Assembly: GCA_002705795.1 (NCBI GenBank)
Contig: PAHG01000012.1
Span: 26,397-59,479 of the forward strand
DNA from: Gammaproteobacteria bacterium
GTDB taxonomy: Bacteria; Pseudomonadota; Gammaproteobacteria; Pseudomonadales; Litorivicinaceae
DNA length: 33,083 nucleotides
Direction of reading: 5' to 3'
Below the pieces are notes generated by a model, which worked only from the letters and a program-made list of their open reading frames with translations, made no database searches and was not told the origin of the DNA. Positions 6,863-8,849 of this stretch are shown piece by piece. Every line of letters starts with the position of its first letter. Within the stretch, counting starts at the first letter, position 1. A program made the position numbers and the translations under genes.

Positions 6863-7882
6863 TCACCCTTGAACCAACAGCGCACGCAGATCAGAAATGG
6901 CTGCGTGCGCTCTAGCGATATAACTCGCCATCACCAACGAGTGGTTGGCAAAAACTCCGAATCCAGACCCGTTCAAGATCGTCGGCGACCAGACAGTTTG
7001 CTGGGTGGCCTCTAATTCACGAATCACCTGCTTCAGCGATACACGTGCATTCTTGTTCTCAAGGACCGAACCGAAGTCACGTTCGATAGCTCGTAATATA
7101 TGTAGAAGTGCCCAGGCGGAGCCGCGCGCTTCATAAAAGACGTCATCAATCTCGAACCATGGCGTCTTGATCACCCGCTCTGATACACCTATCGTGGACT
7201 GGTTTGCTGCCGGATCCCCCGCCAGATCAATATTAAATCGTGCCTGCCCAACACTTGCAGATAGCCGCTGGCTCAGAGAACCAAGGCGCGTCTCCACGTC
7301 GGCCAGATAATTACGCAGATTATCAGCGCGGGCATAGAACTGAGCTCCTTCTTCCGGCGTAGCCAAACGAATCTGGTAAGAGTTTAGTGAGTTTGTTGCT
7401 TTGTAATAGCTCGACTCCGCAGACGGAAACCACTTGCTAGAATCATAGTTAAGCGCAGGTTCAGCGACCACCAAGTCAGCATCCTCAGTTGATTGAGACT
7501 GACTGCGTGATAAGTCTTTGCGCAGAGCGCGCGCTAAATCGCGGGCCTGTACCAACGCACCAAACTCCCAGTTTGGCATGTTATCTAACCAAAGCCCTGG
7601 AGGTGTGACGTCATTGGATAAGTAACCACCGGGTTTTTCGAGCAAAGTCTGTGTTATGAAAATCAAGGTGCTAACAGTTGGATTACCAATCGTCGCCCCG
7701 TTATCAACAGGTCCCGTCTTCGCCAGAATGTCATCAACACCGCGTTGCTCCGGCGGCTGACTCCAGTGGATCCCCAACAGAACCGCGCCGAGAAAAAACA
7801 ATACAAAGGCACCAAACCCGGCGGCAATCCATGTTGATTGGCCTTCAAGGTTGGTAAGCCAGCTTTTCAAAGATCCAAGCAT
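6863..7882 (-). CDS. DUF2333 family membrane-anchored protein
   Basis: The product (339 residues) belongs to DUF2333, a gammaproteobacterial family without known function. One transmembrane segment (WIAAGFGAFVLFFLGAVLLGI) lies near the N-terminus. The remainder is presumably periplasmic and ends with the conserved block IDDVFYEARGSAWALLHIL followed by the FGVFANHSLVMASYIARAHA region. The ORF track starts at a TTG at 7888. I prefer the ATG six bases in, at 7882, with GGA seven bases upstream. It is convergent with ppa at zero distance and divergent from the DsbD-alpha gene. Nothing in the neighbourhood predicts its job. Confidence 0.85.
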   Translation of the reverse strand: MLGSLKSWLTNLEGQSTWIAAGFGAFVLFFLGAVLLGIHWSQPPEQRGVDDILAKTGPVDNGATIGNPTVSTLIFITQTLLEKPGGYLSNDVTPPGLWLDNMPNWEFGALVQARDLARALRKDLSRSQSQSTEDADLVVAEPALNYDSSKWFPSAESSYYKATNSLNSYQIRLATPEEGAQFYARADNLRNYLADVETRLGSLSQRLSASVGQARFNIDLAGDPAANQSTIGVSERVIKTPWFEIDDVFYEARGSAWALLHILRAIERDFGSVLENKNARVSLKQVIRELEATQQTVWSPTILNGSGFGVFANHSLVMASYIARAHAAISDLRALLVQG

Positions 7883-7950
7883 GCTCAATCCGTTTCTCTA
7901 ATAAATGAACAAGGAGTATCATCGGATAATATGACAAGGGGAGGAAACCA

Positions 7951-8367
7951 GTGCAACGCGTTATCTCAAGTTTTATTGTAGCGATTTGTGTCTTCGGGGC
8001 ACCCCCCGTTGAGTCTCAAGGCTCCTTTGGCTCAAGTTTTGGCGCTCCAGACCTTTTGGCACCAGAACAGGCGTTTATCGTCTCGCAACCACGGGCTGAC
8101 GTCATCGAAATCGCAATCGCAGACGGCACATACCTCTACGATGAAAGGACAATCGTGCAAAACGACACCGGTGATATCTTGGAAACAACGCGATCTGCAT
8201 CTGAAATGTATGACGACCCACTACTCGGACCGACGGCAATCCATAAAAAACGCTTGCATATGACCGTATCTAGCGCGCCCAATTTGATGGTTTTAACCTA
8301 CCAAGGGTGCGCGGATATCGGGTTCTGCTATCCCCCCCAACAAACAGAACTGTCATTTTCACGTTAA
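7951..8367 (+). CDS. Secreted stand-alone DsbD N-terminal (alpha) domain protein
   Basis: A GTG start with a strong GGGGAGG site opens a 138-residue protein. It begins with a signal peptide (SSFIVAICVFGAPPVES) and continues as one immunoglobulin-like DsbD-alpha domain. The redox motif YQGCADIGFCYPP is intact: its two cysteines are six residues apart, as in E. coli DsbD Cys103/Cys109. In full DsbD this domain passes electrons from the membrane domain to DsbC, DsbG and CcmG. Here the protein ends right after the motif, with no eight-helix membrane domain and no thioredoxin-like gamma domain, and aroQ begins 44 bp later. It occupies the usual dsbD position before aroQ-accBC, so I read it as a reduced dsbD. 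A partner membrane reductase elsewhere would be needed. Confidence 0.85.
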   Translation: MQRVISSFIVAICVFGAPPVESQGSFGSSFGAPDLLAPEQAFIVSQPRADVIEIAIADGTYLYDERTIVQNDTGDILETTRSASEMYDDPLLGPTAIHKKRLHMTVSSAPNLMVLTYQGCADIGFCYPPQQTELSFSR

Positions 8368-8411
8368 ATCGCGCAAAATAGCGACAATTTTTACGAATTT
8401 GCGGTGATTTC

Positions 8412-8849
8412 ATGTCAAAGGTGCTTGTCCTAAACGGCCCAAACCTCAACTTGCTCGGACAGCGAGAACCTGAAGTTTACGGCGCCACTACCTTGCAGGA
8501 CCTGGAAAACAGACTCACCTCCGGTGCGCCAACTGGAATGAATCTCGAATTTTACCAAAGCAACCACGAGGGCGAGATGATTGACCGCATCCATCAATTA
8601 ATGGATCAACCGGTCGACGGGATTGTAATCAACCCTGGTGCATGGACTCATACCAGCGTGGCCATTCGTGACGCCCTGAGCACCGTAACAGCCCCATTCG
8701 TCGAGGTACATATCTCAAACGTGCACGCACGTGAGGCGTTTCGTCATCATTCATATGTTTCTGATATCGCACTCGCGGTCATAGTGGGGTGCGGAATACA
8801 AGGCTACACATTCGCCCTGGAAACACTGGATCAACACATACAACACTAA
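8412..8849 (+). CDS. aroQ: Type II 3-dehydroquinate dehydratase
   Basis: AroQ converts 3-dehydroquinate to 3-dehydroshikimate, step three of the shikimate pathway. The 145-residue protein is typical: [19 protein letters not shown] contains the catalytic Arg and Tyr, [17 protein letters not shown] carries the substrate-binding segment, and [18 protein letters not shown] provides the catalytic His and the lid Arg. The type II enzyme is a dodecamer of flavodoxin-like subunits. A GGTGA site precedes the ATG. It is first of the aroQ-accB-accC-prmA run, with 9 bp to accB, so one transcript is likely. Confidence 0.97.

What the first reader, a model, noticed from the sequence alone, without database searches (positions are those of the whole stretch)
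7951..8367. dsbD reduced to a secreted alpha domain at its normal locus
The gene before aroQ-accBC, where full-length dsbD is common, encodes only a signal peptide and a DsbD-alpha domain with an intact YQGCADIGFCYPP motif. The membrane and gamma domains are absent, and only 44 bp remain before aroQ. Without the membrane domain it needs another electron source, such as a CcdA/ScsB-type protein, or it has a new role.
Basis: partly seen in the sequence, partly recalled or inferred. Interest (0 to 1): 0.6.

Follow-up and report, generated by a model that had tools for sequence, protein, structure and literature searches.

The report
Stand-alone DsbD alpha domain before aroQ
A bacterial gene that normally makes a three-part electron-carrying machine has been cut down, at its usual place, to the soluble end piece alone; this happened several times in related bacteria, and where it could be checked a second, different membrane machine is present that could feed it, so it looks like a working arrangement rather than a broken gene.

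Summary
ORF 7951-8367 encodes a 138-aa, probably exported protein with only a DsbD alpha domain (Pfam DsbD_N, 54 bits) and an intact YQGCADIGFCYPP motif, 44 bp before aroQ-accBC-prmA-dusB. It is not a recent deletion. The host belongs to the OM252/Litoricola group; 18 of 21 same-genus genomes carry a short DsbD_N gene, and it is under purifying selection (pairwise dN/dS 0.02-0.23). The window's own MAG lacks it, but also lacks about 20 kb around it, including radA, nagZ and pdxH, so a gap in the bin is likely. A tree separates type-2 alphas (one clade, 100/100) from aroQ-locus alphas, and short forms arose several times (7 changes; at least 4 forced); one is sister to a full-length DsbD of its own genus. 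Best reading: a free alpha shuttle, probably reduced by the type-2 gamma domain and serving DsbC and CcmG. The electron route is inferred, not shown. Known domain, new arrangement.

The parts
7951..8367 (+). alpha-only DsbD gene, 138 aa, GTG start, stop at the alpha-domain boundary
   Evidence: a short DsbD_N ORF in 18 of 21 same-genus genomes
7940..7944 (+). ribosome-binding site GGAGG
   Evidence: sequence
7951..8019 (+). probable Sec signal peptide (about residues 1-23), no lipobox
   Evidence: read by eye (basic n-region, hydrophobic core); residues 1-30 low-confidence in the model; no predictor run
8047..8349 (+). DsbD alpha (Ig-fold) domain, residues 33-133
   Evidence: Pfam PF11412; AlphaFold and Foldseek match to nDsbD
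8209..8229 (+). cap-loop equivalent YDDPLLG (residues 87-93); E. coli F70/Y71 replaced by Leu/Leu
   Evidence: F70 shields the disulfide in E. coli (PMC7347389)
8299..8337 (+). active-site motif YQGCADIGFCYPP with Cys120 and Cys126
   Evidence: both Cys invariant in 19 short forms
8368..8411 (+). 44-bp gap to aroQ; no remnant of the beta or gamma domain
8412..8849 (+). aroQ, conserved downstream neighbour (then accB, accC, prmA, dusB, purH)
6863..7888 (-). DUF2333 protein, conserved divergent upstream neighbour
   Evidence: PF10095, 470 bits; synteny

Best explanation
Shown: the gene is the aroQ-locus DsbD reduced at the domain boundary to an alpha domain, and it is conserved across the genus. 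Inferred: the protein is exported and works as a free periplasmic thiol shuttle. The type-2 (ScsB-like) DsbD, encoded elsewhere in relatives and probably in an unassembled part of this genome, brings electrons from cytoplasmic thioredoxin across the membrane. Its thioredoxin-like gamma domain (ADWCITCK) reduces the Cys120-Cys126 disulfide of the free alpha domain, which then reduces DsbC and CcmG, both encoded here. The DsbD pathway is thus split between two genes: a membrane donor with its own divergent alpha, and a loose classical alpha hub.
For: Intact fold and active site. Genus-wide conservation at one locus, mostly with the same end ...CYPPQQTELSFSR. dN/dS 0.02-0.23, mature part 0.01-0.17. 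All nine same-genus relatives at least 90% complete have both genes. The 12 other short-form genomes seen in the order all have a divergent DsbD_TM protein in a long frame; five of these loci were opened and show an alpha-type and a gamma-type Cys motif in one protein. By contrast only 45 of 128 genomes with a classical DsbD_TM have any second DsbD_TM. Short forms arose repeatedly (7 changes, at least 4 forced; G206 short is sister to G031 full, same genus, 100/99). DsbC (G000:C11) and CcmG (G000:C24, 169.6 bits), the established alpha partners, are present (PMC7347389, PMC3420020). In E. coli the isolated alpha and gamma domains exchange electrons in vitro (PMC3961690).
Against: No interaction or activity was tested. 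The donor gene is absent from the window's own assembly. Type-2 proteins have their own alpha domain, so the free one may be redundant or serve another pathway. Cap-loop residues differ from E. coli (F70/Y71 to Leu/Leu), which could change partner choice. That short-form genomes lack a classical TM is close to a tautology, since the classical TM normally sits in this very gene; only the presence of type-2 is informative, and the genomes are not independent.
Confidence: 0.62

Rival explanations
1. The free alpha has a different job: it serves a pathway other than DsbC/CcmG (for example sulfur oxidation or copper handling) and became specialised after loss of the membrane part.
For: The motif is kept but the cap loop and following residues differ from classical DsbD (DDPLLG...PIHKK here, DEYFG...EVYY there). 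OM252 isolates are reported to oxidise thiosulfate (PMC8269220), and ScsB donors serve ScsC in other bacteria (PMC8900818).
Against: DsbC and CcmG are encoded. Most short forms of other families keep a classical DEYFG/DEFFG cap loop. Nothing in the neighbourhood points to sulfur or copper.
Confidence: 0.2
2. Redundant paralogue: the type-2 DsbD does all the work and the short alpha only adds capacity.
For: Type-2 has its own alpha, TM and gamma domains; some genomes carry several DsbD_N copies.
Against: Kept in 18 of 21 same-genus genomes, which are small, with low dN/dS. The two alphas lie in separate clades, so it is no recent duplicate.
Confidence: 0.12
3. Decaying remnant, recent deletion or assembly error.
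For: Two domains are missing compared with full-length DsbD at this locus in other families.
Against: Same short gene in independent isolates and MAGs (HIMB30, LSUCC0096); purifying selection; intact start, RBS and motif.
Confidence: 0.02
4. This organism truly has no membrane donor, and the alpha works without one.
For: No DsbD_TM match in the 91%-complete MAG.
Against: radA, nagZ, pdxH and other neighbours are missing too. The one other genome of 246 without DsbD_TM, G036, has the gene that neighbours type-2 in a congener at a contig start, so there too an assembly break is likely.
Confidence: 0.04

Closest known systems
DsbD (E. coli-type thiol:disulfide interchange protein)
   Same: Alpha domain fold, motif and genomic place before aroQ
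   Different: No membrane beta domain and no gamma domain; 138 aa instead of about 600
ScsB / type-2 DsbD-like proteins
   Same: DsbD_N fold; the likely partner in the same genomes
   Different: They have TM and gamma domains and a divergent alpha motif (WLVCKDICIPES); their alphas form a separate clade
Isolated nDsbD constructs used in vitro
   Same: The same architecture, made artificially; accepts electrons from cDsbD (PMC3961690)
   Different: Here it is a natural gene, with no membrane domain of its own
CcdA with separate thioredoxin-like carriers
   Same: Membrane donor and periplasmic carrier encoded apart (own knowledge)
   Different: The carrier here is an Ig-fold DsbD alpha, not a thioredoxin fold; no CcdA-like DsbD_TM was found in this MAG

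Membership tests
DsbD alpha domain (PF11412) | sequence match above the curated cut-off | tested here: met
   54 bits against 25
DsbD alpha domain (PF11412) | Ig-like fold of nDsbD | tested here: met
   Foldseek top 18 hits are all nDsbD, E 8e-11 to 1e-7
DsbD alpha domain (PF11412) | two active-site cysteines in QGC-x5-CYPP | tested here: met
   Cys120 and Cys126; invariant in A2
DsbD (whole protein) | membrane beta domain (PF02683) | tested here: not met
   absent from the protein and from the MAG
DsbD (whole protein) | C-terminal thioredoxin-like gamma domain | tested here: not met
   no room before aroQ
DsbD (whole protein) | NCBIfam NF001419 cut-off (330 bits) | tested here: not met
   63.8 bits, positions 6-138 of 574
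DsbD (whole protein) | reduces DsbC and CcmG | not testable with these tools
   partner genes present; no assay
ScsB / type-2 DsbD | alpha domain in the type-2 clade | tested here: not met
   window alpha lies on the other side of a 100/100 branch
Exported protein | Sec signal peptide | not testable with these tools
   plausible by eye; no predictor

The most novel reading that the evidence does not exclude
Repeated release of the DsbD alpha domain creates a freely diffusing periplasmic reduction hub that takes electrons from a different (type-2/ScsB-like) membrane reductase: a natural, convergent, cross-family splitting of the DsbD pathway, with the altered cap loop in this genus tuned to the new donor.
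Probability: 0.4. Interest if true: 0.6.

Novelty: new variant of a known kind. Interest (0 to 1): 0.45.

Why it matters
DsbD is the textbook case of an electron cascade whose three domains are tied together. Natural alpha-only genes that appear several times, alongside a different membrane reductase, would show that the alpha hub can be uncoupled and fed in trans, and would give ready-made pairs to ask what determines donor and partner recognition. I found no description of it in the open-access papers searched, which is not proof of absence.

Tried and rejected
The 405-aa gene upstream of the short form in f44 was suspected to be a membrane partner, but is a beta-ketoacyl synthase. Idea that G036 works without any membrane domain: set aside as a likely contig break. 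Idea of one single ancient truncation: not favoured by the tree, although alpha-domain trees are weak deep down (20 of 59 inner branches open). No Rfam hit in the window and no promoter-like site near the gene. Literature searches for a stand-alone or truncated DsbD alpha found nothing.

Full report
What is there. The ORF at 7951-8367 (+) starts with GTG behind GGAGG and encodes 138 aa. Pfam finds one domain, DsbD_N, at residues 33-133 (54 bits). NCBIfam's DsbD model (574 positions) aligns only over positions 6-138, far below its cut-off (63.8 against 330 bits). The stop lies 44 bp before aroQ. A profile of 19 short forms retrieves solved nDsbD chains and nothing else at E<=0.01. The AlphaFold model (mean pLDDT 84, about 95 over residues 41-130) matches nDsbD structures first, and no other structure at E<=0.001.

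Where it comes from. 18 of 21 same-genus genomes hold a short DsbD_N ORF; the three without it are 60-68% complete. At every same-genus locus opened it lies between the divergent DUF2333 gene and aroQ-accBC-prmA-dusB. A sister genus (G023) has it too. Pairwise dN/dS is 0.02-0.23, mostly lower for the mature part. So it is an old, maintained gene and not a recent deletion.

Full-length DsbD elsewhere. Relatives carry a second DsbD_N protein of 666-739 aa with DsbD_TM and a thioredoxin-like gamma domain, between rep/imuB/sulA-like genes and a TlpA-like gene, rpiR and radA. Its alpha motif is of the WLVCKDICIPES type. All nine same-genus relatives at least 90% complete have both genes. The window's own MAG has no DsbD_TM. 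It also gives no match for radA, imuB, the sulA-like gene or the TlpA-like gene beyond a short weak thioredoxin hit, and only low-identity (35-41%) matches for rep and rpiR; nagZ, pdxH, a pta-like gene and ackA are missing as well. That is about 20 kb by G001 coordinates. Absence of the donor is thus most likely a gap in the bin; this is an inference. Searches used concatenated queries, so weak matches could have been missed.

Beyond the family. Alpha-only ORFs in front of aroQ/accBC also occur in families f44, f39, f8, f23 and f13 of the order and in four named MAGs. DsbD_TM scores over 246 genomes are bimodal: 128 have a classical one (E below 1e-60), the rest only a divergent one or none. 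The 12 short-form genomes outside the family that the list showed all have a divergent DsbD_TM in a long frame; for one of them (G092) the locus opened did not show the short gene clearly next to aroQ. Five of those type-2 loci (G222, G206, G218, G132, G257) and two congeners (G075, G102) were opened; each protein shows an alpha-type and a gamma-type Cys motif, and the three scanned with Pfam have all three domains (L207, L208, L210). A second DsbD_TM is found in 45 of 128 classical genomes (Fisher p about 1e-5, but genomes are related, so this is only a guide). The list was cut off, so the number of short forms is a lower bound and leans to high scorers. Of 246 genomes only G000 and G036 lack DsbD_TM; in G036 the gene close to type-2 in a congener lies at a contig start (94% identical), which again points to an assembly break.

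Tree. In a 62-row alpha tree the type-2 alphas form one clade (100/100), and short forms mix with full-length aroQ-locus alphas. The short label needs 7 changes, and at least 4 are forced by well-supported branches. The clearest case is G206 (short), sister to G031 (full), same genus, 100/99. Regaining a TM and a gamma domain is implausible, so several independent losses are the natural reading. Deep branches are poorly resolved, the bootstrap had not fully settled, and one family member (G023) has a very long branch.

Mechanism. In E. coli electrons pass from thioredoxin to tmDsbD, cDsbD and nDsbD, which serves DsbC, DsbG and CcmG (PMC7347389; PMC3961690; PMC3420020). Isolated nDsbD and cDsbD exchange electrons in vitro. 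From my own knowledge, not read here, the domains also function when made as separate polypeptides in E. coli (Katzen and Beckwith 2000). DsbC (G000:C11:106870) and CcmG (G000:C24:7244) are encoded here. The most likely scheme is type-2 gamma to free alpha to DsbC/CcmG. Shown: the domains, their conservation, the partner genes and the co-occurrence. Inferred: export, the direction of electron flow and partner choice. The cap loop of this protein has Leu/Leu where E. coli has F70/Y71, so partner specificity may differ.

Known or new. The domain is known; the stand-alone arrangement, its repeated origin and the association with a type-2 reductase were not found in the open-access literature searched. 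It is filed as a DsbD alpha-domain protein, not as a DsbD, because two defining domains were tested and are absent.

Noticed in passing
L170:4398-5042 (G132): Alpha-only DsbD with a single C-terminal hydrophobic helix (SGPPVTLLLGFALGLVLIAAVVWLSIRR), apparently a membrane-tethered variant at the same locus.
   Followed up: partly
L065:5291-6049 (G036): Alpha-only form with a long N-terminal extension and a possible lipobox (LASC), perhaps a lipoprotein.
   Followed up: no
window 8368-8384: The sequence just after the stop (AATCRCGCAAAATAGC) is conserved among most same-genus genomes; it may be part of an aroQ promoter.
   Followed up: no
L060:4176-6581 (G030): A DUF255/DsbH-like protein with a weak C-terminal DsbD_N match, 24.9 bits against a cut-off of 25.
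   Followed up: no
L206:8894-9940 (G001): A protein with two thioredoxin-like stretches (348 aa) some 16 kb from the type-2 dsbD; a possible further client.
   Followed up: no
L162:4441-5655 and similar in f44, L120, L127: A beta-ketoacyl synthase gene lies directly upstream of the alpha-only gene in several genomes.
   Followed up: partly
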